DNA from: Paramacrobiotus metropolitanus
Lineage: Eukaryota > Tardigrada > Eutardigrada > Parachela > Macrobiotidae
Assembly (NCBI RefSeq): GCF_019649055.1
Contig: NW_026570262.1
Span: forward strand, 620,001 to 684,000
DNA length: 64,000 bases
Reading direction: 5' to 3'
This document shows, piece by piece, positions 1,466 to 64,000 of the stretch. Position numbers and translations under genes: made by a program. The notes under the pieces are model-generated. The model was not told the origin of the DNA, ran no database searches, and saw nothing but the letters and a program-made list of their open reading frames with translations. How positions within the stretch are numbered: the stretch's first letter is position 1; the number at the start of each line of letters is the position of its first letter.

Positions 1466-1468
1466 TCA

Positions 1469-4015: not shown

Positions 4016-5264
4016 GAGGTTCGGTACGGCTGTTGGTGTACTGGCGGTGAGTCGCTGGTTTCAATGGTGTGTTCGGTGGCAGTGGTGCAACCAACGGGTC
4101 GGCCCAGTGACGGAAAAGCTCGGCAGCGGCGACGTAGTACTGCGAACAATCGGTCGCGCTGGCTGGTCGTCAGCCGTGGATTGATGATCATGTTCCTCCA
4201 AGGGAGTTGTTCCTCCAAGGCCGGAGAAACGGGCTCGTAGGCAGAGTCTGCCGCCGCTGGGTTGCTCTTCACACTGAATGAGAGGACCGGTGCGTCAGGG
4301 TTTTCCGTGTACAACTCCAAAGTTCCAAGCGGTGTGGATCCACGGAGGGTTATGTCACGGTCCCAGTAGTTCTTTGCGAACGTGTACGCGGTTCCATTGT
4401 GGACGGTTACGATGGCGTGTTCGAGAAGGATGTCGCCGCGGGAGAACGCGTCGTTGTGCTGCGGGTGGCCGGACGGCTCAAATGGCGTGCGGGAAGGAAT
4501 GAACACGTAGTCGCCATCGCAGGCGGTGACTGAAGGGAATGCCAACTCGATCGCGAGTCCGGACATGGCTGGCACTGTGACTTCCTCGGCAAGGACCACC
4601 GGAATCGAGACTGCCTGGATGCTGCTTGGGCTTGGCGCACCGTGTGCGGTTGGTGACCTTTGGGCGGATTCGGTTTCTGAAGGCACAGAAAAATCCTGTC
4701 GGCCAGTCGCAGTGCAATAGCTGGTTGAGCGTTCATGCAGGTCGGCTTGGTTGTCGGTTGGGAGTGCAGCTTGTTCCGGGACAATAATGCGGTCCTGGCA
4801 GCGAATTTGAAACGGTTTTCCCTCCATGAAGTCCATGCCCAATATGATTTCCGGCATCGCGTTGTCATCACGGAGGAAAATAGTGTGCCGGTACGGTTCA
4901 CCGAAAAGACTGACGGATATGTCGGCACATGTGGTCCCAACTGTCCGGGTATCTCCGTTGCAACCGGTCACACTAAACGACTGGTGAGGCTCGGGAAGAG
5001 GTTTCGGTATGGCCTGCAGATCGGAACAAAAAGAGGCTGGCATGATGGAACTGCTGGCGGCGGTGTCAAAAACAACTGGGCGTGACACTCCGTTTATGGT
5101 GACATACTGGCGTAACATCGTGGAAATCTTCGGCTTGCCATCATGCACAAACGCTTCATGAGACATCACTGGGACATCGAAGGTTGGCCCGGACGGTGGC
5201 GGTTCCGGTGTGGGATCGTTAGGAAATACGGCGTTGACGTGACCCACTGGCGTCGCCGCTAGTG
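3910..5264 (-). pseudogene. pro: Aspartic protease and linker of E1
   Basis: Open frame of about 450 residues entered by -1 shift from gag. The retropepsin active-site region reads F-D-T-A-A-S-S, and the flap/C-terminal motif I-L-G-M-D-F-M lies about 95 residues later, the normal spacing. The active-site triad normally reads D-T/S-G; here the glycine is alanine, so catalysis is doubtful. A linker of about 300 residues follows, ending in the Y-R-x-S motif that precedes RT in Gypsy elements. The frame is lost near 3990, where a short stretch expected before the RT appears deleted, joining to the next frame. Confidence 0.75.
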
Positions 5265-43000: not shown

Positions 43001-46000
43001 GACAGTTATCGCCTTACGTACTGAGATCAGAGAAATAGTCGCGCAGCTGGTCCATCACGCCCTTCTCCAGCAGCGCCTTGACCGCCCAGTTGGCCTTGCG
43101 AAAGACGATTTCGGTTACGACACGCAAACGGCTGTTCTTGCTGTCCAGCTTATGCACCATGTAGTGCGTCACGACGGAAAAGCTACAAATACACAAGACT
43201 CGCAGGAAGAATGTAAAAATAATCACGTAAAATAAAATAATAATGCAGATAAATCCAGAAAACAATGTAGGAATAATCAGGTAGAAAAATCCAGAAAAAT
43301 CACCGGCCAATTTACCTATCGCTGTACGGAGCGCCGTGATTCTGGGCGACCGAGTCCACCAGATGCAGCCGGCCCGGAACTGATTCCTTGAGGAGCGTCT
43401 AACAAATTCAACGAAATGTTTGTTATGTCGCGCAATTACCTCAGAAGGATCGTTCGAATGATCTACCTGTCGTTCTTCCGTCCGAATGGTCTTCGGTCCG
43501 ACGGAGATGCAGTACTTCACATCTCGCACCTGGCAGTCATTGCTGGGATCCAGCACCCACTGGCCGAATTTCGTATCAAAAATCTTTCGTCGCAGGAACA
43601 TTTCCTGAAAAACGCACATTCATGATAACATAACATTTGATTCTCACAGTCACAAGGGTAATTAATGCCAGGTAAATGACATCCTAAGCAGTAAAGCGGC
43701 AACAAGTTCTATAGTTGACAGCAATCGTAGTGCAGCGGTTCAATAGAGGTCCCCGTGGTCTTAGCATTGGAAAAGAAGCAGAATTTTCAATATAGTCAAA
43801 ATCACGTTAACAAACTATATTGATGTATTTTTTTAATATTATTCTGTATTAGAGAAAGTGGAAAAACTATAGAAATGCATTTTACATGTGACAAAGATGA
43901 TAGAAATGTACATTCTACCGGCCCCTTCATACTACTTTAGTCCGCGTTATAATAAGCCAGCGCAGGTAGAAATAATAAAATAAATAATAAAATGATAGAA
44001 TAAACAGATAATAAAATGATAAAAGTAAAAACATCTAAAACAAATAAAAATAAATAAATGGCACTAAATAATAAAATGATAGAATTTAAAAAATTATTAA
44101 AAACAGCGAATATTACAGCTAATTCTCTCTTCCGCTATTTACCTTCAGCAGGGTGGATTCGGAAAACAGCACCAGGAACAGTTTATCAAACGGGACGTGG
44201 AATTCATGATCGATAAATCCCTGCGCCCCACTGGGCACCGGGGGAATGAACACCGGCTGCTGCTGGGCCTCCTCGCCCTCCGCCGACGCCCCACTACTCG
44301 AACTGCGGCTGGATCCGGACCCCACACTGCCGCTGCGGTTGCGCACCAGCTCCGGCGGGCCACACGGGCCCACACTGAACACCGGCCCGGCGTCCATCAT
44401 CTCCGTCTCCAGCTTCTTGTCGACGGCCCCGTTGGGCAGCGGGAACTCCCCGCCCCCGCCTTCCTGCTGGTGCTGGGCGGCCTGCGCTTCCGCCTCCGCG
44501 GCGCCGTTGACTGCCGAGATCAGCTCGGGCAGGGAGCGGAGGTAGGCCGGCTGCACGTAGTCCTCGTCGTCGCTGGTCAGGCCCAGGTCGTCGCCGTACT
44601 GGTAGTGGATGAACGACCACATTTCCGGCGGGCTCATCGGCTGCATCATTACACACCCATTTACATTTCCTAATTAATTTTCTCTTCTCTTTTTATGCTA
44701 ATCGATGGGCCTGTTATCAGTGGTTAGTGGATAAAAGAAAGCCGCCCAAGCGGTAAAAAAAACGGCAAGTTTATCACTACAAATTAATTTGCGTCTGCGC
44801 TTTTTTGCCTGGTGCGCTTCCCGTTTCCTCGCTTACAGCCAGTTTTCTATGATGCTAGTTGCTCTGCAAACTCTTCCAGTACAAATCTACAGGAAATCAG
44901 GCACGTCTGTTAAAAATCAGACAAAATCGATACTTAAGCTATTCAACAATTTTCTCGATCTTTGCAACCTGCTTTAAATGTGCGCAAAATTGTGATTCTC
45001 TATATTTTTTTATTGTGATTCTCCAGATTGTCATCGTACGGATAATGGATGAACGACCACATTTCCGATGGGCATCATGGTCTCATAGGGGCAGACAATG
45101 CACAGAACTCTTTTTACACAAAATTATATTTTTTTTAATTATATTCATTTCTGTTCTATTTTTAGGTCACTCGCTGGGTCTGTTATCAGTGAATGACAAT
45201 AAAGCGTAAAAAAACCTGAAAACTGTTAAGTATCACAACATTACTACTCGTAATTCGTGCCTGTGTTATGCTGTCTACACGCGGCATTCAACAATGCCTG
45301 GAACGGTTTAGTTTACAACCACACTACTACGAATCGCTCCCAGTACCAAGTACGTGATCTGGCACACTTTTTTTAAAATCAAAAGAAAACGATGAATTTA
45401 ATTTGTAGCAAACATATACGATACTTTCCGACATTTTTAAACTGTTTCATGCGCGCCAATTGTGTTTTATCTGATTTTTTATTATGCAGCGGATTTTGGC
45501 CTGATCGCGCTGGTCAGGCCCAGATCGTCGCCGTACTGGTGTGGATGAATGACCACATTTCCGGCGGGCTTATCGGCTGCAGACGATACACAAGGAATTT
45601 TGTACACATAAATTACATTTTTTATAATAATTATGTCATCTTTGTAGGCTAATGCTTGGGCCGGTTAGCAGTGAACAACAGAAAAAAGCAAGGAAAAAAA
45701 AGTAAAACTTATACCCCACTACTACTTTCAATACGGTGCCTCTACTATTGTACATATATATTGCCAAATGGGCCACATTTGAACAGACGATGGACTTATG
45801 AAAATTGCAGCCACTTTTCTACAATGTTATCCGTTATACGGACTTGTGCAGTACAAAAGTGTCAGATCTGCCAGTCAATTTTCTCTGGAATAAAAAAATT
45901 TATCCACTGAACGAAAAACTTCATTGCTGCAATTAAAAACACATTTAAAACTTTTGAACCTGTTTCCATGCGCGGCAAATTTGCACTGATTTTCTACTAT

Positions 46001-48417
46001 GCAGCGGATGCACTGCCATCAGAATTTATCGTAACACTATAAACAGTTAAAATCAGCTGGAAGTTTTCCAACAGGAAAACTTTCAGCTAAATTTTTAGCA
46101 AAGAGGCGGTGAAAAATGCTGTAACCTTGCCCATGACCAGATAATGTAACTTAACAGCGCCATTTAATACGTACCTGATTTTTCACGGCGCCCTGCCAGA
46201 TCCGGTACAGATTGGTGAAGGTTTTATCGCGCTGTCCGAAAGACGTAAAATAATACTGCTCCTGATCCGTTGCGTAGCTGATAGCGTTCGGAATGATCTT
46301 GGCGGTGCGCTCCTTGTTTAGCGCACGCACATTCTTCCACGACGTACAAATCTGTAACCATTAATACGTCTCTAGAATAAAGCCGCAATTTTAAATCGAT
46401 TTTATTCCATTTACAAATTATATATTATTATTTAATTATACCATTTTCTTTCTTAAAGAATGTAACGAAATTTATATACCACAGCTTATTTGCCTGAATC
46501 AGAAAATTTGAATACGATTAGTTATAAAGCAGATGCTTCACAAAAACCGCAATTAATTTAGAACTTTTCAAACCATTTATAGGTTATTTTGTACACAGAA
46601 AACTCCAGATAAATTTATTTCATATAGGACATTTATAGATTTTTTGTATAACTACAATTTATAAATTTTTCCACACATATTAAGAAAATAAAAAAAAATG
46701 GAAATACACATACGTTCGTTTCCCAAGCGATAATCTTGGCATAAAAGCAAATATGGTTCTGCGATGCATACAGGCGGCCCTGCACCAGAATATCACGCTG
46801 CAGTGCACAGGAATAATCTGCAAATAAAAATCACAAAATTCATCAGAAAAAGGTGCGGCGGGAATTACCCAATTAATTTCAAAATTAAATTTTCCCCATT
46901 TCCCACCGTCATTGTCAGGAAAACGAATTCGGGTAATTCTTCACCGACAATGATCAACAGAAAAAATTTATTTTTTATCAGTGTACCGATCAGTAGGCGT
47001 TCGCCTTCCGGAATGCTGGGGAACAGCCGACGGAACTCTTCGCTGCGTTGTTTGTACGTAGGATACAGCGACTAACACAGAAGAAAAAATACGCATTAGA
47101 AAATTATACCACGGGATAAGCGTATGAAGAATGCAAACCAACTGTGTAACATAACCAACTATATAAAATTTACGATCCTGCTGTACCTTTATGCATAACA
47201 ATAAAAAGTTACGTATTATCTTAAAAACTACTCGTACAAGTAGTACACGGATGAGGCGCAAGCTTAGGTAGCCGAAGGAACAACCTTGTGCCACTGTTCT
47301 ACAATGCCGCTACTAAACTTCTGACAGCCGATAGGAGTATCAAACCAACATATACATATCCAAACGTATAAAATATGTGTAAAATACACATAAAACGCGA
47401 AAAAAATATAAAATGTAATAGATATGTGAACAAAATGTAATAGGTATGTGTAAAAAAATATGTGTACGAATAAAATATGGAAAAATGTGCAACATTAATG
47501 ATAAAATTAAAAAAAGTGTACAAAAAAATGCATAAAATGTACCTGGTACCAGCGTTGCTGGCGCTTCTTATCGGAGCTCTTCCCGCTCTTCCCGGCCGAA
47601 CTAGCGATGGAACTGGCATCGGAGTTATGCCGCACCACCAAACTACTGGGCGTCTGCTGTTGCTTCTTCTCCCCACCGCCCGCCGTCCCATTACTCCCAC
47701 CCGACGACTTCTCCTTCCCCTCCTCCGAACTCTTGGTGGACGACGCACTGCCCAGACTGACCTCCTCGGCACTGGCGCCCTGCGGACTGATCAGGGGGGT
47801 CAGGGGGCGCTCCACACTGCCCTCGCGGCTATTTGCGCCGCTGGGCACCTCCTGACTGTTGTCGAAGCTCCCGGACTGCGAGGCGCCCTCCTCCTTCTTC
47901 TCGAACGCGATACTGACCGCCGAGGGGCTGGCGGTGGAGTAGGAGGCCACAAAATCTCCGATCTTCCCCGGGGAGTCCTTGTCGTTGCCCGGGGAGGGGC
48001 TGGGGGATTTGGCGCGGTCCGTGTCGCGGTGGCGGACGCGAGGCGGCGCCGTGGGGCTGGCCGGGACGCTAACGGGCGGGAGGTGGTACTGGTCGGGCGC
48101 CGAGAGGGCGATATCCGGGAGCGCGGGACTGGAGGCCCTCCTACACCGAAAAAACTTGAAAAAATGTGGATGGGAGGGGGTTACTGATTTTACCGAGCGT
48201 TCTGCGGGGAAGCCGAGAGCAGCGGGGACTTCCGGGGCTCCGGGAGGTCGAGCGGGGCCTCCTTCTCAGCGGGCACCCCCTCCACGGTGGTGTCCATCTT
48301 CGGGGGGTAGGTAATCACCGCCAGGGGGGAGGGCGGGGATTGTAAGCCAACCAGTAGGGGCAGGGTTTTCAACTGCAACGATAAACGCTGACTGATGCGT
48401 TTACTGATCTCCTCCAT
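40066..48417 (-). CDS. GRAMD1: GRAMD1/Aster-type sterol transfer protein
   Basis: Fourteen exons: 48417-48194, 48140-47543, 47071-46987, 46817-46714, 46351-46175, 44640-44143, 43604-43467, 43398-43316, 43182-43022, 42630-42430, 42297-42195, 41563-41417, 41334-41211 and 40158-40066. All GT-AG with phases that close exactly, giving 911 residues. Residues 1-274 are Ser/Pro-rich and disordered. The GRAM domain is at about 275-395 (D-Y-S-C-A-L-Q-R-D-I-L-V-Q-G-R-L-Y). A conserved L-G-L-T-S-D-D-E-D-Y-V follows at about 417. The VASt (ASTER) sterol-binding domain is at about 540-690 and a membrane anchor at about 788-806 (L-I-I-V-L-L-L-I-N-A-L-L-Y-W). Aster proteins sit in the ER, bind plasma-membrane lipid by GRAM and carry sterol in VASt. 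The family is usually about 660-740 residues; the extra length is in disordered parts. Confidence 0.93.
44565..46050 (-). repeat. Decayed tandem copies of the start of GRAMD1 exon 6 inside intron 5
   Basis: The first 60-80 bp of exon 6 and adjoining intron recur at about 45035-45090 and 45510-45590 (GATGAACGACCACATTTCC and GATGAATGACCACATTTCC), at steps of roughly 450 and 500 bp, each with the neighbouring intron (CTGTTATCAGTG-type) sequence. The copy at 45510 has a one-base deletion that breaks the frame; the copy at 45035 is more diverged. The real exon 6 (44640-44143) is intact. Confidence 0.75.
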
Positions 48418-49947
48418 GGCGCGTTAATTAACACCGGGGATCCCGCGCGTAATCAACAGCCCGCGGGATCATATCCCACGTCAATGGGGGGCGGGAAGTA
48501 AGACACTCAGGATTCAAGCAATCAATATAATGTGAGAAAATACAAGTACCACATTTCCGTGTTCAAACAAGGGGTAACTAAGCAGCAGAGTGGATTCGAA
48601 ATTTAATATGAAAAGTGGAGAAAATATGACTATGACATCAAAGTTTGCAGACAGGGGAATAGACTACGTGTGCCACACGGTACATGCCGGTGGTAAATAG
48701 TGATTTGGTGAATTTGAATTGGAGACTGATAAGGTTATCGCGGGTGTATGGCTGCTGCGCGATCAGGTGAGGGAACGGGGACGGCGCAGAAATTAAGCAA
48801 TCAATCCGGGTTAAAAGGCTGTTAAACTGTTTACCAGTTTGTGTAATTTCCTGTGCCCTGATAAAGCCGTCCAGGAAAATATCCGCGTAATCAACATAAC
48901 ACCAGTAAACAGTGTAATACTGCAATACCCGCAAAGAAATCCACAGAAAAGAAAAGGGACGAATAATCAAGAGCAAAAAGTTTAGGAAAAATTCCGGAAA
49001 ATAAAATGTTTGCTATATTTTCTGCCAGTAAAAACAATAAAATAACTTGTTAAAATATACAACTTAAATAAAACGAGAAATAAAATGCTAAATAAAATGT
49101 TAAACAAAATCTTTGATATTCTTTCTGCAAATAAAAGCGTTTTTGGCAATCGATAACGCATCGAAAAAAATCAAGGATAACAAAGATTTTTGCAGCATGT
49201 CAAAAGCCACGGGAAGTAAAAAAGGGGCTTTTCAAATCTGAATAAAAAAACAATATCTCACCACCGGAAGTCCGGTCACTTGAAACGATTTTTTCCGAAT
49301 TCCCTGTTTTTTTAAAATAATATTTTGCGCGTGAAATAATTCTTTATAATTAATTTTATTTCCAACCGAAAAACGACAGCAACCGTTAGCTGATAACGTG
49401 ATAAACACCGGAAGGAAACCCGTTAAATACGTAAAAGAAAGCGCGAAACGATGAGCCGATAATAAGCATGTAGACAGCGTCATTTGACAGGTTTCAGCAA
49501 CAGCCGCCGAAATGTAAACTGACACACCTTCGTCCACGATCGCGGGGCTTTTTCACGCCCACATACGGATTACTGCCAACATTGCCATCCCCCACCCGCT
49601 AACCACAGTCTCATCAGATTACACTGCTTTACAAGTTAATTATAAGTGCAACGCCAATCACAACAATTCGCGCGAAAAGAAAACTTTTATCTAGCAAATT
49701 CCCTTCAAAATTAAAAAAAATGATTAAAACAACTTGAATACGATAAAATATTTTAACCAGACGATCACATCTAACGTTTACAATTATTAAAATTCGCCGA
49801 CAAAAAAGATGCTTCAAATTAAACAAAATTTTAAAACGATGCTAACAATGTACCAGTAAAAATTTCACAAATTTATGAAGTTGATAAACTACTGTATGCG
49901 ATATTACTGAAACAGTTCCTACAAATTACAAAAGATCCCCTAAGTTT
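48418..49947. other. Region between GRAMD1 start and E2 LTR
   Basis: No gene recognised. It should hold the GRAMD1 promoter. A GC-rich inverted pair (GGGATCCCGCGCG near 48437 and CCCGCGGGATC near 48461) lies just upstream of the GRAMD1 start codon. Confidence 0.4.
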
Positions 49948-50398
49948 TGTTAGAGGCACGACAGCCTGCGTGATAGATACGCCACTTTGCGTATGCGTAT
50001 CACTGCACACATGCTGATTCGCCCTCTCTTGTACGTACGTGGGTGGCTGCACTGCACTCTCCGCCTATGCGGATACACCGCGGGCGCACTCACTGAGCAT
50101 ACTTGCTCTCTCGCTCCTCTCTCTCGCTGTATGACTCAGCGTATATTCGCTCGCGTTGGATACGAGTCCAGTCTGCGCACTCACATTCCATGTGTCTGGA
50201 CAGCGTGACGCCGTTGCCGCCAGCACATTTCTTTCTCTACAATTCATTACGCTCTAGAACTAGCTCGCAGCAACTTGACTTGCTGATTTCTGCCAGACAC
50301 TGGCCTTTGTTGTGTTTTTCCCCGCATTCACGCGGCATTCGCTCCACTTTATTTGTACAATAAAGTCACCTGTGAGCTCTCTGTGCTTGCCTGTCACA
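49948..50398 (+). repeat. 5' LTR of E2
   Basis: 451 bp starting TGTTAGAGGC and ending CTGTCACA, so TGT...ACA ends. AATAAA at 50359-50364 sits about 35 bp before the end, and a TGG-starting primer-binding site follows immediately. The 3' LTR is outside the window, so there is no pairwise confirmation. Confidence 0.7.
50359..50364 (+). terminator. Polyadenylation signal in E2 LTR
   Basis: AATAAA in the position expected at the R/U5 side of an LTR. Confidence 0.55.
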
Positions 50399-50416
50399 TG
50401 GTAAGCAGATCGTCTG
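50399..50416 (+). other. Putative tRNA primer-binding site of E2
   Basis: TGGTAAGCAGATCGTCTG directly abuts the LTR end; TGG pairs with tRNA CCA. The tRNA is not assigned. Confidence 0.5.
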
Positions 50417-51656
50417 GTTTTTCGGTTTATCGGATCCTTTGAGGAGACGGTAAAGGCATAACTTGCGGAGAACTCGAAGAACCCACGGTTGAAAACAGAT
50501 TGACTGCGAACGCAGCCTCTGCTTCAACCTGGTCTTTGCTGTCTAGCGACTGTGGTAGCAACAGGTTGATCGCAAAAGCGATCCCTGCCACCTTCGCTTG
50601 CCCTATCTTTTGGCTCTTCCACACAAGGAGAGCACTTTGGCTGACTGCCCCAGACGGACAAACGGGAACTCCCCCACCGCAACTGACGGACCAGGCTCAG
50701 AAGGAAGCCTGCAGCGCGCAAGGATCCTCTCAACAATCGGGGACCTTCTCCTTGAACGGAGACCCGCAACTTTAACGGCGGAATTCGACCTCCCAACGGC
50801 GGATCACCGACCTCCACGGACACCGTAACGAACCGGTAAAGTCCTGGTTACAGGTCGACACAGGTCGAATCTAGCTATAATTCTTAATTCTTAACGGCTG
50901 AAATTTATTTCTAAGAACTAGAAATAATTTTTCTACGGTAAAAAGTTAATTTTTGTCGGAGAAACCGACCTACAAAATTACTTTACCGACCTAACTGACC
51001 ACCCTGTGTAACGGAGCAGAGGTCGGTCATCTTCTTACTTTCTTGATTTGACGGATTTTCCACCGTCAGAAAAATTTCTGAGAATCTAGAAATTATTTCT
51101 AACGGCTTAAAAATTAAAATTTCGACCAGAAAACATCTCTGATCGACCTAAAAATAATTTTGTTTTTCCGCGAAAATAAGCGCGAAAATTCCCGAATTTC
51201 CTTGTGACGTCAGAACGCTCGATTTTCAGTACTTTGAAGCTAGCCAATCAGCGTGCAGGGGAAACTTCCCATACGCTTAACATAGGCGTGAATCATCATT
51301 TTTTAAATTTTGCACGCGGCTCGCATTCTGTGACGTAGGCAGCGAAGTGCAAGACCACTTAGCCCTGTGACGTCATACTGGTCAGCACAGTAGTATAGGA
51401 CGTACTCTACTGTAGTACCTTATCATACTGTACTGTACCATAGTACTGTATTGTAACGTTGTGTACTGAGTCACACACAGACACATCAACACAACAGCAA
51501 CAACAACAAGTCGGACCATCCTGACCCTCGGAAGTTCCTGAACCCAAAGACGTTCCTGATTTCATTGAACATCCCCACATAAGGGATTGTTCAATTTACT
51601 GTACAACAGTACAAGTTTCTCGTTGGTTCCACTTGAACCGACCTGACCCGACAACG
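50417..51656 (+). promoter_or_regulatory. Long leader of E2 with promoter-like motifs
   Basis: 1.24 kb between PBS and gag ATG, with no gene. Two perfect CRE palindromes TGACGTCA (51205-51212 and 51368-51375) and a CCAAT box (about 51243) cluster in 170 bp. The packaging signal would normally also lie in this stretch. Confidence 0.35.
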
Positions 51657-54600
51657 ATGTCGAACCCGAAGGAAAACGAATACGCCCGAAAGTTCAACAC
51701 GGACTATTCGCGGCGCCTGACCTCCAACGCGCCGTATGCACTACGGCACTCTGGCCAGGATAAAAGTCAGCCGTCATCAACGGACTCAACGAAGTCGGCC
51801 GAGGCAAGGGAGAAGCGCAACGAGCGGATCCTCCTCGCCGATTCCAACCCAACGTCCGATGACAGCTTCGAGGACGCCCACGACAAGACGTTCCTCGAGC
51901 CCCGAGCTGGCTTAGCAGCCCCGTCCCACCCGACCGGGGGGGAAATGGAGCATCTGCAGGCTGAGACCACATTGTCTCATGCCGAGGCGGAACACCCACA
52001 TGGTGTACCGACCTCTACGGACTCAATAGAAGGACTTCAACTGAGCTCACAGAAAGCTCAGGAGTCGGTAACGACTACGAAAGTCACCGACGCCGGACAC
52101 ACATCACCTAACCAGACGGATGACGTGAAGAGGTCGACATCGCCCAACTCGGGTAGAGCGACTTCACCGACCTCGAAGGTCGGAGAGAAGCAACCGATAA
52201 CGGAAATCGGTCAAGTCCAACCGACCACAGAAGTCGGTAGGGCTTCACCAACCTCTAAGGACGGTCAACGGAAACCGACCTCGGGGGTCGGTTATCCTCA
52301 ACCGGAGGTCGGACCTCATCTGACAACACAAGTCGGAATTGAGGTCGGAAGACTACAGCAATCACCAACCAAGGAAGTTGGCCAAGTCCAACCGACAACA
52401 GAAGTCGGGAGGATTTCGCCGACCAAGAAGAATGGAAGTCCACCGACCAAGGAGGTTGGTCAACAGAAGCCACCTACTGAGGTCGGACCTCACCCGACAA
52501 CACAAGTCGGAACTGAGGTCGGACTACTTCCACCGACCAAGGAGGTCGGTCAACAGAAGCCACCTGCTGAGGTCGGACCTCACCCGACAACACAAGTCGG
52601 AACTGAGGTCGGACTACTTCCACCGACCAAGGTCGGTCAACAAAGACAGACCATGGAGGTCGGACCTCGTCCGACAACACAAGTCGGAACCGAGGTCGAA
52701 CAACTCCCACCAACTCCAAGGATCGGACAACAGCAGGTCGGTAAAGTCCAACCGACCTCCCTGGAACGGAAGCCAGCGGATAACAGGTCGGATATGGACA
52801 TCCAGTGGCCTAAACTATCGGCCAAAACGGGAGAAACTGAGGCCCCGCCACGAAGCGGACCTCACCCGGCTGGATCACCAACCAACATACCGATGCCTAA
52901 CGAAAAGGCTATTTCACCGTTAAGTCGACCTTCGCCAACGGAAGGCAGGTCGACCCGAGTAACAGAAGCTCAACCGAAGGTGAAGTCGGACAAGTCGTCA
53001 ACAAGTCGACCTGTCGACTTACTGAAGAAGCAGTCGCCACCGATGTTCGAACTTGGCGACTCGGGTAGCGAAACGCCACCACCCATGGACGACGTTTTTG
53101 ACACAACAGTAATGTCACGTCCCAGTAGCAAGGATGGATTCTTCCGAACGCCGGTGGCACCCCACTTGGGTAACCATAGGTACCAAGCAAGTACGCTTGA
53201 GTACACAGCACGGAAGTGGATCGCATCCACACCTCCAGAAAAGATCGAAGACGTCGATCGACTCAGGAAACGATGCCAGGATCTGATAACTCAAATCGTC
53301 CTGGCCGACCAAATCGTTAACTCCACAGAAAGTCAGATGTCACGATCGGAGGACACCCATAAACTCGAACGGAGGCGATGGGAAAAAGAACTCGCTGACG
53401 CCAACAAAGGCATAGCCGCTCAACAGTGCCGGATAGAACATCTGGAGAGTCACCTCAAGAGGTCCGACAACCCATGTCGGTACGACTTCGAAGAGGTCGA
53501 GCGACTCAAGAGTACACTCGCGACATCTATGGAGTCAATCTTTGAATTGAAAAGACGGCTCCACGCTGTGGAAAAAGACATGGCTGACACACAAGCAGCC
53601 TTGGTCGAATCGGAACTGGCAGCAGGAAAATTCCACCAACAGCTTAATCAAGCCAACGAAGAGGCTGAAGTGTACCGGAAGGAGGTCGACCGATACATGG
53701 TCGAACTCAAGCAGGCCGACGACGAGGTCGACCGGCAAAGACACCGAATCGAACAACTCGAAAGGGAGATGGAAACTCTCCTGGTCAGGGCAGGACGACA
53801 GCTAATGGCTCACTACGGCCAGCAACCTGCCTCACCTGACCGAAGTAGAGCCATCACCGACCTGGAACAGGCGAACGCCCAACTGACCGACCAGGTCTAT
53901 GGACTCAACGATGTGCTGAAGGAGGAACAACGACTCCGAGCACAGCTGGAACACAGCCTGGCAGAAGCCCAAAAGGTGCACGAAGCGCAACAGAACCGCA
54001 TCGCACACTTGGAAGTCCGCGAAAACGACCTGTACAACTACGGTCTGGACGCGGATAAATATATCGATGACTTAAATCGATATATCGACGAAATGACCAC
54101 GTATACCGACGACTTGGATACGGAGGTACGCTGTCTCCAGGAGGAAACGAAACACTTGGAACAATCCAGGACGGAGCCTCCATCCTACAGGACTTCGATG
54201 GCAACGGACTTCCACTTTGAACCGTCGCAAACAGTCCGAGATATCCTGTGGGACATTAAACCTAAAGAGGAGAAGAAGGAACAGAACTTCTTCGTGGGCG
54301 TGGTGACAACTAACCCGCTCATCGGAACTCCTCCGCAGCAACAGCCTCTGCCCCACCGTCCAGAACCGGAACGGAATACGTCGACTGCGGCACCACATGT
54401 GCCAACGTCAAACGTGCCGACAACGACGACGGCCACGTCAGGTACCTACACTAGTACCACGTATGCAACACACACATCGATGCATGCGCCAGCGCCCACC
54501 ACGTCCCACCCGAATGGACCAGCGCCTAATCAATGGGGCGCAGGACGGCGACTAGGAGAGCGAACAAGCTCACATCCCAACATGGACGACTTCGGCCGCT

Positions 54601-56589
54601 TGACGATAAGCGACTCCGATTACCGGCGTGAACGAGCTAGGTCATACAATAACGACCTACCTCCAGGAGGACGAAGCGGACAACCGAATCCGGAACGCCC
54701 TCCCGCCGAGTACCCACAAGACTCGCAGAACGTGCCTCGGTTCCGACCAACAGAAGGTCGGGCACCACCGAGAAGGCCGTTCAGAAGTCAGCATGGAAGG
54801 GTGAACGACCTTCCACCGGGATTCTACCAACAGCCACAACGGCCACCACGAGCACCAGCTCCTCAGCCGGAACCGTACCCGGCCGGATACCCAGACCAAC
54901 AAGGTCGGGCATACCCAGACCAACAAGGTCGAGGATATCCACAACAACAGAATTATGGATATCCGGAGCAACAGAACCAGTATTACCCAGACCAACAAGG
55001 TCGGGGATACCATGCGGAACAAGGTTGGGAAGCAAACCCTCCCCCACCGCCTGCCATGGACGCCCAACAAGCGGCTAACCGGGCATTCCAGGAAACGATG
55101 ATCCGTGTGTGTGCCCGCGGACGTAAGCAGAAATTGCCGGAATACGACGGCGACCATAACAAACTCGAGGGATGGTTGAAACAAATCCGTCGATTCTACG
55201 CGGAAGCACAAGAATGGCATGAATCGGACCACACGTTCATGACAGACCTCATCGCACGACTCGAAGGCCAGGCCGCACAATGGCACAGGGACACCGCCGG
55301 CAGTGAACCAGCCGGAGGATGGCCAGTCAACCTTGGTTGGCTAAGTTCGAAGAACGGTTCGGCGACAAAAACAAGGAAATTAACGCCGTAACCGCCATGG
55401 CCAAACGAAAGTACCGCTTTGGACAAGAGACGCCAGAACAGTACTATGACGCCATGATGAACATCAAGTCCCGATGTGACACCATCACGGACCAGATGGC
55501 ACTTTTCCATCTGAAGGATAACATTCACGAACCCAAGCTACGAGAAGCCTTGGAGATTCGTATGCCGGCAACACCGGTAGAACTGCGTGACTACATACGC
55601 CAGTTCGTAAACGGAAAGGAGATGTACGACGTGGCGAAGGGATCACGGGATACCGACTATGCCCGGGTCCGAGCAACAACGCCGACACCAGCTCCTTTAC
55701 CGCAGGCACCAGTACAAACAGTGTACCAGCCATACATGATGCCGGGATACCAAAGTCCACCGGCAACATACGTGCAACCGACCACACCGATGACGCCACC
55801 AGCGCAAATGGCGCCGGTCCAGCAACCGACCTGGGCCGGAGTGGCGGCTGTCAACTTGGCAGCACCCCAACCAGCAGCCGGAGCCCCAGTAAACAACTAC
55901 GGAGGCCAAAGTCCTGGCTCTGGAAGTAACCAGAACAACGGAAGTTCTGGATACAACCAAAACCCAAACCAGGGATACTCCGCATACGGTCAGAGTCCAA
56001 CACAAGGATTCGGCGGCGGAGGCTACGGTCGCGGAAAAGGACGTGGCGGCGGAAATCGCGGCCGCGGTAACTTTAACCGCGGCGGAGGCGGAAACCAACA
56101 GGGTAACCGACCTTCCCAAGCACAACAAGGTGCTCGGCAGTTTACGACTTATGCGGATAAGATGGAACAACTGTTCCTTCAGTGGACGCTGGCGGACAGC
56201 TTTACTTGCCACTTCTGCAAGTTCGGGAACCATCCCCAGGCACGCTGCGCGTTCATCGGCACTCGGGTGCAGGACAACCCGAATCGCCGCTGGTATGAGG
56301 ATTGGCATACGCGATACCTGACGGGAGGACCGTTGGGTTCGGCCAACCCGAACTCGGCACAGATCGTGCCACCCCGCGCCAACGCCAACAAGGAGGAGGC
56401 TCGGGCGGTGCTGGTAACGGAAACCAGCAGGCCGGCTCAGGAAATGGGTCGGGCGGAAACCGCAGGAATAGCGGTGGAGGTCAACAGGGATCTCCGGAAC
56501 AGCGGCAAATGCTACCGCCACATCAGCCCTTTGGCTCGCCGTCACCCAACAATGGGCCGGCTCGGGGAAACTCCTCGGGAAACGCTTAA
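51657..56589 (+). CDS. gag: Giant Gag polyprotein of E2 (two frame lesions)
   Basis: ATG at 51657, TAA at 56587-56589, about 1,640 codons; typical Ty3/Gypsy gag is 300-500. Order: a low-complexity part with repeated E-V-G and P-T-T-E-V-G (about residues 150-390); a long coiled coil rich in Glu, Arg and Gln (about 530-850); a Pro/Gln/Tyr-rich linker with Y-P-D-Q-Q-G-R repeats; a capsid-like part (W-L-K-Q-I-R-R-F, then W-H-R-D, then F-E-E-R-F-G-D); an R-G-G-rich segment; and a zinc knuckle C-X2-C-X4-H-X4-C at about 56203-56250. The frame jumps by -1 near 55319 and again near 56375, where Gly/Asn/Gln-rich sequence continues in the next frame. These look like lesions or assembly errors, so the copy may not make full Gag. 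Confidence 0.85.
52441..52711 (+). repeat. 90-bp tandem repeat in E2 gag
   Basis: CACCGACCAAGG recurs at 52441, 52531 and 52621: three units of 90 bp (30 residues) encoding P-P-T-K-E-V-G and T-T-Q-V-G-T-E-V-G phrases. Diverged single phrases extend on both sides. Confidence 0.85.
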
Positions 56590-56643
56590 GGTCGATGAGC
56601 CCCGGTGACTCATTCGACCTGCGACATCCCACCGAACCACCGG
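56565..56643 (+). promoter_or_regulatory. Programmed -1 frameshift cassette: two GGGAAAC heptamers and H-type pseudoknot
   Basis: G_GGA_AAC occurs twice in the gag reading phase (56565-56571 and 56577-56583), the second two codons before the gag TAA. Slipping -1 at either enters the pol frame. Five bases later stem 1 pairs 56589-56599 with 56609-56620 (11 bp, one bulged T). Loop bases 56602-56607 (CCGGTG) pair with 56638-56643 (CACCGG), forming stem 2 of an H-type pseudoknot. GGGAAAC is a known retroviral slippery heptamer. The structure was found by eye and not folded. Confidence 0.8.
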
Positions 56644-59600
56644 ACAAGGATAACCCTACTAACCAACTTCACTTTAACCGGAGAGAATCGCCCATACCCA
56701 CAACAGAAGGGGAAGTCATCCAACGGATGGATGCCTTGGTCAGACAACTAGGTCTGGACCATAACAGCACGGAAGAAGAATTCGCCAACGCATTAATGGC
56801 TTCAACAGATGAAGCCACAACGGCCAGAACAATGGCAGAACGACTCGGAATTTTTGTTAACAATGGCAAATTCGAGATCCGGACCGGAACGCAACGAATG
56901 CCCGACTCACCCGACCCAACGCATCAACTTGGCGCTGGAACGTCAGAGGCCGGAACGCAGGGATTGCCCGGAACGGCCGACCCAATACCTCAACTTGGCA
57001 TTGGAACGTCGGAGGTCGGAACGCAAGAAATGCCCGACCTACGCAGCACGAACAATGTGACTGCGCCGCCCGCCACAGAAAGTGACGCAGGACGGACCGG
57101 CCACGGAAGTTGGACCGGACTGCCGGTGAGAAGAAACCCAACCGAGCAGCCCAGACAAGGGCCAAGACGCGGAGGACCGGGACGCCGATTCACGCAAAGG
57201 GGCAACAGAAACTTCCCCAATGTATCATCCGGACGCGCAACGGATAGATACGCTGCAACAATGGCAGCTATCGACCTCACCGAAGAATCGGAAGGAGAAG
57301 TCGAAATATGGGAAACAGTCCCTCTGGAAGCACAGGCACCCGCTCACTGGCTGCAGCAGGAGTCGGACCTCTCCCAGCAACAACCTCAACCGGCTAGAAC
57401 AGTAGCCGGATCTCGGACGTTCGTCAACCTTGACTACATATGGTCGCAAGTGAGGCCAACAGAAACCTCGATAGAAGAACGGATACGAGAACAAACACGA
57501 CGGTTCGAAACTCCCACCGACGTGCTGGAGGACGGAGTAGCTAACCGACCTCAGGTACATGAAGTGGTCGTAACCGAAGTGGGACCAATCCAAGGCACGC
57601 TGACGCCAACAGAAGGCGGATCAGTCTCCTTAATTCCCGTCACACCGACTGTACGGGAAGTGACCTTCGAAAAAGGGACTCACAAGAAACCGAAGACGGT
57701 CAGAGCCTGGACACACGCAATCCAGATCGGACCGACGCCCACTATGGCGATGCTCGACACAGGAGCAGAGACTTCGCTGATCGAACAACGATTCTGCGAA
57801 CAAAACGACCTGCCAATGCAACCTCTTGGCCATTACACTCGGATACTTGGCGTAGGCGGACAAGTTGCCTTCACCGTAACTCACTGTTGCACCGTACCGG
57901 TAACGCTGCAGGGATTTACGAGCCATCACACTTTCCACGTTCAACCGAACAACGCGGATATCCCAGTGTTACTTGGATGTGATTACCTTCATTCCAAGTT
58001 CACCTTCGTGCTAACGCCCATTCCTAACCCGGAACGACCTGGAGGAATGACGGTAGTGCAGTCTATCCCGATACCAGAGGCATCGGGCACGGTAACAACT
58101 GAAGCAAGGATAAGTCGGCTTGATCACCCGTCAAACCCTTTGCCCAACATTTGCCGTGACTGCCGGGATACCAACCGGACTCTGATCGAGGAGATGCAAC
58201 TGCACAACGCCATCGAAGCGTACGAAGAAAGGATACGAACTGGAAAACTACGTCCGAAGAAACGCATACTGAAGACGGCAGTAAAGTCTATCCCGATACC
58301 AGAGGCATCCGCAACGGAAGCGGATGCCATCTTAGAAGTCCAACAAAAGTACCGGACTTGGTTTACGGGAATACAACACTTTCTCGACCGACGGACGTTG
58401 GAGATGATGGCCACTCTCCAACAGAACGGAGCGGTGACCACGGACCAGATACAGGAAGCACAACGGACATGCGAACCTGTATTGGCCCTCGCCGAAGACA
58501 TCGACGATGAAGCTTGGGAATGGGAAGACGAACGAGTCCCAATCCATCGGCAGTACATGGAATACGGACTTCCAGTACCACGCCCTCTGGAGATACCCTG
58601 CCAAGAACTAGGCGGAGCACTCTTCAGTTACATGCGACAAGTACAGTTGTACGGAGAATCGACTACAACTGCGTTTTGGAAACGGTACGGCGAGGACACC
58701 TCAATAACAAGGACGATCCCCGACCCGTTACCGCCAATCACGGAACACTTTCCGAAGGAAGTCAAATTCGTCAATGACCTGAAGAAGCCAACTGAGCACA
58801 CGCAAATTGGCGAAATTGACCGACCTGATCGCTGCATAATTTGCAACGATAATATTGATGGAGTCGTCCGGACGCTGAAGACTCACCATGACCTGACTTG
58901 GATTGACGGCAGACCGTCGTCACCGGCCCCTCCGCAACCAGAACGGAAGGTAAACTCAAGCCGGAAGACCAAGTCGGTAGCTAACCAATGGCTGAGCAAC
59001 ATAAGCTCACAGCCATCCGACCTGGAGAATCAGGAAGGAGAGAGTCGACCGACCCAACCAAAGGAAACGGCCGACCAGGGTGCACCGACCACGGAAGTCG
59101 GAGAAGGTAGCGTGCCACCGACCACAGAAGTCGGACACGACAACACACCTGACGCTAACCCTCAAGACGAGCAAGAATCCGAAGAATATAACTCGGACGC
59201 TTCGGACGTACAAAGTTCGAGTGACTCACCGGACACAGACTCCGACAACCAACCTTCGGAAGAATCCGAAGAGGAGGATGATGATGAGGAATTCGACCCG
59301 TCAGTACGAAACTGCAGGTCAGATAAACCGCGGAATGACGACTCGGACGACTCATCCGGAGAGGACGAAGAACCGACCTACGACGTCCGGCTGACAAAAG
59401 CCTTGCGGTCCATCATCCACACTGAATTCATAGTCGACCCTCCCCCGGAACAAACCGGACAGGAAAAGCCAGTCGATGTCGAACAACAAGCGGAACTCGA
59501 ACAACTTCAAATTTTACGGGAATTTGGAGGAGGCCAACCGGAGGAACACGACCTCCGACCTCCAACCATAGTAACCCAGCAGCTGTCAACCGAACAACCG

Positions 59601-62600
59601 ACCTCGGTTAACTTAACTGACCAACAGAAGTCGGAGCAACCGCGCCCACAGAAGGTCCGGATTGCAAAAGTTAACTCGATTACGGAGTTGAACTTGGGCA
59701 ACAAGCACCCACAAGTCCATCATCTAGCACTGGACCCGTTCATCGACTCGAAGCCGCTAGACCGACAGGTGGTCTTTAACAGCGAGCGAGTCTCTCTCCC
59801 ACCTTACTCAACGTGCTCTATCAAGGTACGGACAGCCAGACCAATGGACCCGATGAGACCCATCTACTTCTACACCTTACGGCGGAAGCACCGACCTATC
59901 CGACCGATAGAAGCAAAAATTGAGATCCGACCTCAGATAGACACGGCCTGGATAAACATCCAGAACATGACTCACCTACCGCGAATATTGAAGAAAGGCA
60001 TAAAACTTGGCCATATGCAATACAGCGACATGTTCGAACCGGATATCGACAACCAGTACGTCGAATGGGAACTCCCACTTGGAATTGCCAAGACTTGGCC
60101 ACCCAAGCCGGAACCAAAGCCATCGCCGAAATTTGAAATTTTCGAGGCGACAGGAGTTAGAGCTCAACGGAAAGTGAAACTCCTACCGCGGGCGATAACC
60201 CAAGTACACGTTATAATGGACGTTGCAGTAGCCACCGGACAGAAACTCATGTACCTTGGTGGATCCGACCCCCAACGAGACGGAGTCGAAATGATGGATG
60301 GCGTAACTAAACATGATGGGAGACGATTTACCATCATGGTAGCCAACCACACTCACCGTGAGGTCACCTTACGAAAAGGTGCCCCCATGGGTCGAGTCGA
60401 ACCGTTCCAAATGATGACGGACGACCAGAGAGTTGAAGAAGCAAGAATACGGTCAGCCCAGGTAGAGGAAGAAGACGCGGAATCCCAGGAAGAGCGACGA
60501 AGAATCATCGACTCCATGAACTTCGGTAAGAACTTAACCGATGAGCAACTTGCCCAACTTAAGGCAGTCGCCTGGGAATACCGGACCGTCTTCCCAACCT
60601 CAAAGAAACCATATGGAGATGTCAAAGGTGTAACACACACCATCGACGTCCAAGGTGCACAGCCGATTAAGATGAACCCCACCAGAACAAGCTGGAAAGG
60701 AAGGGAGTTCATCCAAAAACATGTGCAGGAAATGCTCGATCAAGGAGTTATTGAACCTTCATCGGCTGCATGGAGCTTCCCCGTCGTCTTAGCCGCGAAA
60801 CGGAACGGAGACGGCACGGTTGGAACTCGTTTCTGCATCAACTACATAAAGTTGAATGCAGTAACAAAGAAGAATAACTACCCGTTACCGAACCCGGACG
60901 AGTTACTGGACCAGTGCGCCGGAATGGAGTACTACGGTAAGGTAGACTGTCAGTCCGGATTCTGGCAAATCCCCATGGACGAAAACTCCAAGGACTACAC
61001 AACCTTCGTAACACCGGAGGGAATGTGGAGATTTAACCGTATGCCATTTGGAGTCTGCAACGGACCAGCGACCTTCCAGATGCATATGGATAAGATAACG
61101 GCATCAGCCCGGAAGAAAGGCGTGTTTGCATACATTGACGACATCATCTTCTTCGGCAAAACTTTCGAAGATTTTGTCGAGGCTTTCCGAGCGACCCTCG
61201 AATGCCTCAGAGATGCCGGATTCACCATTAAGCCCTCCAAATGCGAGGTCGGAACGGATAAAATGCTGTTCCTCGGACACGTCCTTAGCAAAGACGGAGT
61301 CCAAACCGACGATGAAAAAGTAGCAGCCATAGCTCAACATGATTACCCAAGGACAGAACGCCAACTGAGGTCGTTCCTGGGATTGGCTAACTACTACCGT
61401 AAGTTCATCCGAGGATACGCCCAGAAGACATCGAAGATGTACGAGCTCCTACGGAAGGACCAAAACATCAAAAAGGATTGGACGGAGGCCCACACGGCCG
61501 AGTTCAACGAAATCAAAAAGGCGTTAACAGAAGCGCCCGTACTGGCGAAGTTCGACCCGGCAAAAGAGACCGTCATTGAATGTGACGCAAGCGGAGCCGG
61601 ACTTGGCGCGGTGTTATCCCAGGACGGACATCCGATCGCCTACGCCAGCAGAGTCTTACACGGACCTGAACTCAACTATGGAGTCACAGAATGGGAATGT
61701 TTGGCCGTGGTATGGGCAGTGCAAAAATTCAAGCACTACATCGACCATGGACCTTTCACCGTACAAACGGATCATCGGGCATTGCAGAACCTGCTTAGAT
61801 GCGAGTCAAACCGACCTGGCATCAACCCTCGGCTAACACGATGGGCACTGGCTTTACAAGGACGGGACATAACCATCAAATACAAGCCAGGAGTATTCTG
61901 CGACAATGCGGACGCCTTGTCGAGGTGGCCACTCGAACGGAGTGACGACAAAGATCCACATGAAGAGTTGGATCAGGTGCCTAACTTCGAAGACTTTAAG
62001 GACGAAATTAAAGTCTGCACCGTACGGACCTTACGACGTCTGAAGGACAAAGCATACAAGAAGAAGAAGAGGGATGAGAAGGAACCACCGGAAATTCCAC
62101 TTCCACCACCTCTTCCCGGATGTAACGTCATTTCAGACTGGGATGACCTAAGTACCACAGAAGTACGGGTCGTCAACGTACCAGCTCCGAAGACGTCGGA
62201 CCTCAACATATTGGAACCGACCATCCGGACCGCAAATACGGCGGAAGAGACGGACGAGTTGAGCCCACATGGCGATATACTCGTACCGCCCGTGTCAACA
62301 AACGCGGAATTGCGCAAAGCACAGTTGCGAGACCCGCACTTACGGAAAATCATCGATGAACTGGAGAACCTGGATAAACTCGACTACAAGTCGAAGTACA
62401 CCGAGCATTACCAAATGGCTCAGGGACTCCTATATCGATTGAAGACAATTAACGACAAGCTGGAAAGATGCTTCGTCGTACCTCTCTTCATGCGAACGAA
62501 CATCATACGCTCGCTACATGATGGGAAAACCGGAAACCACTTCGGACGTGATAAAACAATGGAAGCATTGAAGTTGCGCTACTACTGGGAACGGATGTCA

Positions 62601-64000
62601 ACCGATGTGTTTGAATACATTCGGAAATGCCGACAGTGCATTTTGGCCAACAAGGTCCGACGTCCCCCACCGGGTAAACTCCAGAAGATGGAGGTTGGTG
62701 AAGCTTGGTATCGTATCTACGCGGACTTCAAGGGACCTTTACCTCGAACGCAGACGAAAGGATACCAATACATCGCAGTGGTAACCGACCAGCTGACGAA
62801 GTTCACCATCGCCCGGGCAACCAAAACAAACACCGCGAAGGAATTTGAAAAGTTCTTTGTGGAAGATGTCCTGCTGAAGTACGGAATGCCGACCTTCATC
62901 CACTCGGACCGAGGGACGCACTTTACGGCGAAAACATTCGCTAAAGTTGCGAGGATTTTCGGCATCCAACATACGCTTGGAACAGCCTATCATCCGGAAG
63001 GCCAAGGACAAGTCGAACGGCAAATGCAGACGATATGGGACGGAATACGAAAGTTCTGCAATATAAAGGACGGACACCGTTGGCACAGAGCCTTACCATA
63101 TGTCGTCTGCGGGATGAACAGAGCAGTCCATGCCTCGACCAAATTCTCACCTTACCACATGCTGTATGGTCGGGAAATGACCATGCCACAGGACTTAGTG
63201 GCCGGAACAAACGCACCGGAACAGTATACGGATAAGGAACATTACATCAGGCGGATAAAGGAACGACTTCAGATGGCTCACGAAATTGCGCGCATCAACA
63301 TTGATGAAGCCTTTGAACGGAGCGCCGAAGTTTATAATAAGAAGAAGTCATCACCGACCTTCAAACCACGGGATAAGGTAACGGTGGAATTCCCAACTAA
63401 GGACCCCGCCAGGATGGAACGATACGACGGAGAGTGGACGGTCATCAGCTACGTTGGCCCGAACAACCTACTACTCCGAAGTGAGGACGGACGGGAAGAC
63501 ACCGTAGCCGTCGACCGAGTGAAACATTTTCCAGCCGACGCACGTCGACCAGTAACTCGGTCATCTGGTCAAAAGAAGCCGGATAACGACCTGGGAACCG
63601 ACCCCACGGAAGGGAAGGCAACCAGTAAGTCGACTAAACAGCCCGAAGTAACCATCGAACAATCGCAGAAATTGGACTTAACCGACCAACCCGAAGTAAC
63701 GGTTAAGAAAAGAGGTCGAGGTCGACCTCGGAAGAAACCGCCGATGGACTTCGAGACACCAGCCCTGCAGGAATTGCAGAAGCAAAATGTGATACCGGAT
63801 GAACCAGCTGAACCAACCTTGGAGAAACCAAAGGAGTCGGACAACAAGTCCGAAGAACCAGTTCAGCCATCCAACCAACCTACGGAAGAATCCAAGAGGT
63901 CGGTGACTAAACCGGCAAGGAAGAAGAAGTCGGATAAGACGACCGACCAGGCGGCACCGACCACAGAAGGCGAAGTAGCCGACCCGGCAATCGCACCGAC
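56583..64000 (+). CDS. pol: Pol polyprotein of E2 (open to window end)
   Basis: Uninterrupted frame of about 2,470 codons, entered by -1 shift, continuing past the window. Residues 1-390 are low-complexity with a 22-residue repeat (G-T-Q-x-M-P-D). Protease D-T-G-A-E lies at 57756. A segment of about 950 residues follows (58000-60600) with a duplicated S-I-P-I-P-E-A-S, a C-x-x-C...H-H motif (58836) and a very acidic stretch. RT has Y-I-D-D at 61131. RNase H has E-C-D-A-S at about 61577. Integrase has an intact H-H-C-C site (62510-62650) and D, D, E at about 62725, 62907 and 63016. The C-terminal tail carries an AT-hook (R-G-R-G-R-P-R-K-K, about 63709-63735). All catalytic residues I can check are present. 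Confidence 0.92.

What the first reader, a model, noticed from the sequence alone, without database searches (positions are those of the whole stretch)
56565..56643. Doubled slippery heptamer with a textbook pseudoknot at the E2 gag-pol junction
Two in-phase G_GGA_AAC sites 12 nt apart, a 5-nt spacer, an 11-bp stem 1 and a 6-bp stem 2. The -1 frame opens exactly into a 2,470-codon pol. A single heptamer is normal; two tandem ones in the same phase could raise or buffer the frameshift rate. Phase, spacing and pairing are seen directly; efficiency is inference.
Basis: partly seen in the sequence, partly recalled or inferred. Interest (0 to 1): 0.75.

Follow-up and report, generated by a model that had tools for sequence, protein, structure and literature searches.

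The report
Ordinary gag-pol frameshift signal, one site
A retrotransposon in a water-bear (tardigrade) genome carries a standard-looking signal that makes ribosomes slip back one base to read its second gene; the apparent duplicate slip site is a trait of one sub-lineage and is probably not used.

Summary
The sequence features are real. GGGAAAC lies at 56565 and 56577, and an H-type pseudoknot (stem 1 of 11 bp with one bulge, stem 2 of 6 bp) can form 5 nt after the second. Of 740 slippery heptamers scanned on both strands, only 56577 has such a structure at the right distance. The host is the tardigrade Paramacrobiotus metropolitanus; the stem motif has 172 places at up to 3 mismatches. I read 135 junctions. 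The second heptamer is intact in 115 of 135. An in-phase upstream heptamer occurs in 23 of 35 copies found with a pattern containing it, but in 0 of 73 and 0 of 27 found otherwise; in 52 of the 73 a pol-frame stop lies within 12 nt upstream of the second site. So 56577 is probably the working site and the doubling is incidental. Against this, 21 of the 40 closest copies keep both, and 7 only the upstream one. In the window copy the long gag ORF is not in the slip frame. Stem positions are conserved but show no covariation beyond shuffles. Verdict: a new member of a well-known kind. Frameshifting was not measured.

The parts
56577..56583 (+). GGGAAAC, read G_GGA_AAC in the family's gag frame: the likely slip site
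   Evidence: intact in 115 of 135 copies read; 5 nt before stem 1
56565..56571 (+). upstream GGGAAAC, same phase; probably incidental (Gly-Asn codons of gag in this sub-lineage)
   Evidence: in phase in 23 of 35, 0 of 73 and 0 of 27 copies of the three sets; 17 nt before stem 1
56584..56588 (+). spacer of 5 nt
   Evidence: sequence; one search finds spacer 5
56589..56599 (+). stem 1, 5' arm
56600..56601 (+). loop 1 (2 nt), variable among copies
56602..56607 (+). stem 2, 5' arm
56609..56620 (+). stem 1, 3' arm, with one bulged base (56613)
56621..56637 (+). loop 3 (17 nt), variable among copies
56638..56643 (+). stem 2, 3' arm
56587..56589 (+). TAA that ends the slip (donor) frame
   Evidence: a donor-frame stop at this place or 9 nt further on is found in most copies
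56472..63998 (+). pol frame (protease, RT, RNase H, integrase), open to the window end
55307..56608 (+). last gag ORF of this copy; not in the slip frame where it meets the heptamers
   Evidence: no Pfam match
51525..55391 (+). upstream long ORF (1,288 codons stop to stop); in the C201 copy this stretch and gag form one frame
   Evidence: weak coiled-coil matches below Pfam's cut-offs

Best explanation
This is the programmed -1 ribosomal frameshift signal of a Ty3/gypsy-like retrotransposon family of the tardigrade Paramacrobiotus metropolitanus. Ribosomes translating gag pause at the pseudoknot 56589-56643; some slip back one base on G_GGA_AAC at 56577 and continue into pol as a Gag-Pol fusion, the rest stop at the second codon after the heptamer (TAA) or, in other sub-lineages, at the fifth (TGA). 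The upstream GGGAAAC at 56565 belongs to Gly-Asn codons of gag in one sub-lineage and adds little or nothing. The window copy probably makes no full-length Gag-Pol by this route because its gag frame is broken. Shown: sequence, phases, pairing potential, conservation. Inferred: pausing, slippage, product ratio.
For: Only 1 of 740 heptamers has this pseudoknot at the right distance, 0 of 2000 shuffles. Site 2 intact in 33/35, 65/73 and 17/27 copies of the three sets (115/135). 30 of 32 copies with gag open in the slip frame have site 2 intact, 8 of 32 have an in-phase upstream heptamer. In set A (34 copies, L028 left out) the third base of the Gly codon differs in 10 at site 1 and in 0 at site 2. 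Paired third positions of the pol frame vary less than unpaired ones: 0.22 against 0.81 bits, permutation p 0.0066, 34 haplotypes of sets A and C. In the C201 copy gag is one frame of about 1,660 codons ending at the TAA, with pol at -1.
Against: Frameshifting was not measured. Covariation gives no support: 1 of 17 pairs with one double change, reached by 50 of 500 shuffles. 20 of 135 copies lack site 2. In this very copy the long gag ORF does not read the slip frame. Of the 40 copies closest to the window's junction, 7 keep only an upstream GGGAAAC (phase not checked) and 21 keep both.
Confidence: 0.87

Rival explanations
1. Both heptamers work: in the young E2 sub-lineage the upstream GGGAAAC is a second slip site that raises or buffers frameshifting.
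For: Same phase and no pol-frame stop between the two in the window copy. Both are present in 21 of the 40 copies closest to the window's junction.
Against: 17 nt from stem 1. No in-phase upstream heptamer in 73 and 27 copies not chosen by that pattern; 52 of 73 have a pol-frame stop within 12 nt upstream of site 2. Third base free at site 1, fixed at site 2 within set A. 24 of 32 open-gag copies lack it.
Confidence: 0.05
2. Pol is made by termination and re-initiation: the gag stop lies next to, or overlaps, the pol-frame ATG at 56595, and the RNA structure helps re-initiation.
For: TAA at 56587 and ATG at 56595 are 6 bp apart here; in copies with the TGA stop it overlaps the ATG (sequence).
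Against: It does not explain the conserved heptamer and 5-nt spacing. The A of the ATG is G in 4 of 58 copies of sets A and C examined.
Confidence: 0.05
3. The +1 relation of the 433-codon gag ORF and pol in this copy is the true organisation (a +1 shift).
For: Frames of the window copy.
Against: In 32 of 95 long loci gag is open in the -1 donor frame. The phase steps in the window, C242 and C141 copies lie at different places and are not all of the same sign, as expected of decay or assembly errors.
Confidence: 0.01

Closest known systems
PEG10 (mammalian gene derived from a Ty3/gypsy element), -1 frameshift signal
   Same: GGGAAAC heptamer, spacer of 5 nt, pseudoknot behind it (PMC2800197, two passages)
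   Different: A domesticated single gene in mammals; here a multicopy element with its own sequence. Stem lengths of PEG10's pseudoknot were not seen and not compared.
Retroviral GGGAAAC-pseudoknot signals (CAEV, FIV, MPMV, SRV-1, JSRV, HERV-K10)
   Same: GGGAAAC with an H-type pseudoknot. The table row of CAEV reads 4, 10, 7, 1, 15, 0 (PMC3835772, table passage; column heads not seen, read by me as spacer, stem 1, stem 2 and loops), close to 5, 11, 6, 2, 17, 1 here.
   Different: Retroviruses of vertebrates; several of them have stem 1 of 6-7 bp and a spacer of 6-7 nt by the same table.
Animal LTR retrotransposons with pol at -1
   Different: No paper on such a signal in a tardigrade element appeared in the listings; the library lacks most subscription journals.

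Membership tests
Programmed -1 ribosomal frameshift signal | Slippery heptamer X_XXY_YYZ in the phase of the upstream frame | tested here: met
   Met for the family: 30 of 32 open-gag copies have GGGAAAC in phase. Not met by the long gag ORF of the window copy itself.
Programmed -1 ribosomal frameshift signal | Downstream reading frame at -1, overlapping the end of the upstream one | tested here: met
Programmed -1 ribosomal frameshift signal | Pseudoknot or stem-loop 5-9 nt downstream | tested here: met
   By pairing scan and shuffles and conservation of paired third positions; no pseudoknot energy program was at hand
Programmed -1 ribosomal frameshift signal | Compensatory changes in the stems | tested here: inconclusive
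   One double change in 71 haplotypes, 50 of 500 shuffles do as well
Programmed -1 ribosomal frameshift signal | Measured frameshifting | not testable with these tools
   needs a reporter, peptide or profiling data
Functional tandem slip sites | Both heptamers conserved among copies | tested here: not met
   Upstream site in phase in 0 of 73 and 0 of 27 copies, 23 of 35 where selected for; both present in 21 of the 40 closest copies
Ty3/gypsy-like LTR retrotransposon | Pol order protease, RT, RNase H, integrase | tested here: met
   Pfam matches above cut-off in that order
Ty3/gypsy-like LTR retrotransposon | Long terminal repeats | not tested
   The 3' end lies beyond the window; a repeat search of 46000-64000 found internal repeats only
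Ty3/gypsy-like LTR retrotransposon | Recognisable Gag domain | tested here: inconclusive
   No Pfam match for the 429-aa ORF, weak coiled-coil matches below cut-off for the 1,252-aa ORF
PEG10/sushi lineage | RT phylogeny within that lineage | not tested
   no tree was built

The most novel reading that the evidence does not exclude
In the young E2 sub-lineage the extra in-phase GGGAAAC 12 nt upstream is a recently gained auxiliary slip site that changes the Gag-Pol output of an unusually large element (gag about 1,660 codons in one copy, pol at least 2,468).
Probability: 0.05. Interest if true: 0.5.

Novelty: new member of a known kind. Interest (0 to 1): 0.28.

Why it matters
It adds a tardigrade retrotransposon family with many copies to the known GGGAAAC-pseudoknot frameshift signals, and offers a natural panel of junctions with and without the upstream heptamer on which slip-site and spacing rules could be tested. 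It also shows how comparison of copies within one genome sorts a striking motif in one copy into a conserved and an incidental half.

Tried and rejected
Rejected: a +1 shift at this junction (the relation seen in the window copy is not that of the 32 open-gag loci). A second programmed shift between the 1,288-codon ORF and the gag ORF: no heptamer of the form XXXYYYZ in 55251-55450 of the window or in 54900-55140 of C242, and the C201 copy has no frame break there. An Rfam family: no match up to E 1 in 48000-64000. Covariation from a second, related family (protein P0122, 225 matches): three loci read; they share a GGGAAAC, but it lies in pol coding behind a donor-frame stop, and their gag-pol junctions stayed unclear. 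A heptamer in the overlap of the two E1 ORFs: none in 3850-4080 of the minus strand.

Rows dropped or set aside: pattern hit L025 is not an element copy and was dropped, leaving 35 in set A. Seven of the 100 listed exact-stem places were not fetched and 20 were already in set A, leaving 73 in set B. L028 was left out of the count; L033 needed its anchor moved by one base. In one search, 4 of the 62 copies of sets A and C (L033, L111, L118, L119) were left out of the per-site table.

One script timed out without output and one had a syntax error. Alignment A1 held a misplaced row and was not used. The script box had no pseudoknot energy routine.

Full report
WHAT IS THERE. The window lies in contig C42 of a 170-Mb genome. 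The best match of the E2 RT-integrase piece is an annotated protein of Paramacrobiotus metropolitanus (66% identity) on a contig of 4,484,719 bases, which is the length of contig C1 here; so I take the genome to be that tardigrade's (lineage). E2 is a Ty3/gypsy-like element: pol carries protease, RT, RNase H and integrase in that order (that this order marks Ty3/gypsy is recalled). The two GGGAAAC heptamers are at 56565 and 56577 in one phase. Behind the second, after 5 nt, an H-type pseudoknot can form: stem 1 56589-56599/56609-56620 (11 bp, one bulged base), loop 1 of 2 nt, stem 2 56602-56607/56638-56643 (6 bp), one base between the stems, loop 3 of 17 nt.

CHANCE. GGGAAAC alone is not rare (13 in the window, 9.89 expected). 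The combination is: of 371 plus-strand and 369 minus-strand heptamers only 56577 has stem 1 >=11 and stem 2 >=6 at 4-9 nt, and 0 of 2000 dinucleotide shuffles of 56584-56660 form it. With looser stems (>=8, >=5) 9 and 16 heptamers qualify, and stem pairs of the strict size occur at 17 plus-strand positions of the window regardless of a heptamer. The first heptamer, 17 nt from stem 1, does not qualify.

FRAMES IN THIS COPY. The gag ORF 55307-56608 has codon starts at 2 mod 3, pol at 0 mod 3, and the frame that reads G_GGA_AAC at 1 mod 3; the last has stops at 56296 and 56587 and none between. So here the long gag ORF and pol stand in a +1 relation. Other copies show the family's plan: in 32 of 95 long loci the slip frame is open to the edge of the locus (at least 1,289 nt upstream of site 2), and in the C201 copy it is open from -4973 to the stop at +22, about 1,660 codons. 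The window, C242 and C141 copies have phase steps at different places and not all of the same sign. The gag of the window copy is therefore broken, by decay or by assembly error, and intact copies exist.

WHICH HEPTAMER MATTERS. I read 135 copies in three sets. Set A (35, one false hit dropped) was found with a pattern holding both heptamers, up to 2 mismatches. Set B (73) comes from the 100 listed exact matches to a stem pattern without the heptamers (20 of the 100 were already in set A and 7 were not fetched). Set C (27) comes from DNA similarity searches. Site 2 is GGGAAAC in 33/35, 65/73 and 17/27, 115 of 135 in all. An in-phase upstream GGGAAAC is found in 23/35, 0/73 and 0/27. In set A, where both sites faced the same search pattern, the third base of the Gly codon differs in 10 of 34 copies at site 1 and in none at site 2; L033 has another change at site 1 and L026 another at site 2. 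In set B 52 of 73 have a pol-frame stop within 12 nt upstream of site 2, and 15 of the 32 open-gag copies have one at -9 (rows); in those a slip upstream of the stop cannot reach pol. Among the 32 open-gag copies site 2 is intact in 30 and an in-phase upstream heptamer is present in 8.

RESULTS AGAINST. In the 40 copies closest to the window's own junction (without one fragment) site 2 is intact in 31, an upstream GGGAAAC in any phase is present in 28, both in 21, and only the upstream one in 7. So the doubled motif is common in this young sub-lineage, and a role there is not excluded.

COPIES WITHOUT SITE 2. Of the 20 copies lacking site 2, 12 lie within 15 kb of a contig end, against 29 of the 115 that have it (Fisher p 0.003). 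Several show short losses in runs of G. Assembly error is a likely cause for part of them; no reads were at hand.

CONSERVATION AND COVARIATION. In 71 distinct haplotypes 98.0% of 1,207 pair cells are standard pairs, but only one pair, in one copy (L113, G-C to A-U), changed on both sides, and 50 of 500 shuffles do as well. The stems vary too little for covariation to speak, and 37 of the 71 haplotypes are represented by set-B copies, chosen for an exact stem. A test without those: in the 34 haplotypes of sets A and C the 11 paired third positions of the pol frame have a mean entropy of 0.22 bits and the 7 unpaired ones 0.81, permutation p 0.0066. With so few positions this is moderate support for selection on the RNA beyond the protein.

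MECHANISM. Best supported: pausing at the pseudoknot, a -1 slip on G_GGA_AAC at 56577 and a Gag-Pol fusion, with termination a few codons on for the rest. Donor-frame stops sit at +10 (TAA) or +19 (TGA) from site 2 in nearly all copies. The pause, the slip and the rate are inferred. Re-initiation at the ATG 56595 is kept as a rival because stop and start are close; it does not explain the conserved heptamer.

COMPARISON. The signal is of a well-known kind. PEG10 has the same heptamer and a 5-nt spacer before a pseudoknot (PMC2800197, two passages). CAEV, FIV, MPMV, SRV-1, JSRV and HERV-K10 have GGGAAAC with pseudoknots (PMC3835772, table passages). A review says that 28 of 51 animal LTR elements surveyed in 2003 have pol at -1 (PMC5009743, passage). 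The listings show no paper on frameshifting in a tardigrade retrotransposon by title or abstract; a 2024 paper on tardigrade transposon curation (PMC11071193) was listed and not read. Searches for tandem, 'two slippery' or 'second slippery' sites listed 0, 1 and 3 papers; none is about a doubled site in a retroelement by title or the start of its abstract, and the 'two slippery' passage of PMC3835772 concerns two alternative heptamers in different flaviviruses.

VERDICT.

Noticed in passing
L028, L057, L073, L094, L105, L106, L114, L117, L118, L131, L132, L134: Copies that lack the second heptamer lie near contig ends more often than the others (12 of 20 against 29 of 115 within 15 kb), several with short losses in G runs: possibly assembly errors.
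   Followed up: partly
L013 and L139 (contig C201): One copy has a single open gag frame of about 1,660 codons stop to stop, large for a Gag; no Gag domain is recognised by Pfam in the window's ORFs.
   Followed up: partly
window 58005-60825 (pol residues about 471-1410): Between the protease and RT matches of pol lie about 945 residues without a Pfam match, rich in E, P, T and D.
   Followed up: no
window 149-5247, minus strand: A second Ty3/gypsy-like element, 32% identical to E2 over RT to integrase; its protease and RT ORFs overlap in different frames, and the overlap holds no slippery heptamer.
   Followed up: partly
window 52193-52705: Repeats of about 90 nt (four copies, 66-98% identical to the reference copy) inside the upstream long ORF of E2.
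   Followed up: no
L140, L141, L142: A related large family (225 matches to the N-terminal piece of one pol) keeps GGGAAAC at a like place in the three loci read, but with a donor-frame stop 17 nt upstream.
   Followed up: partly
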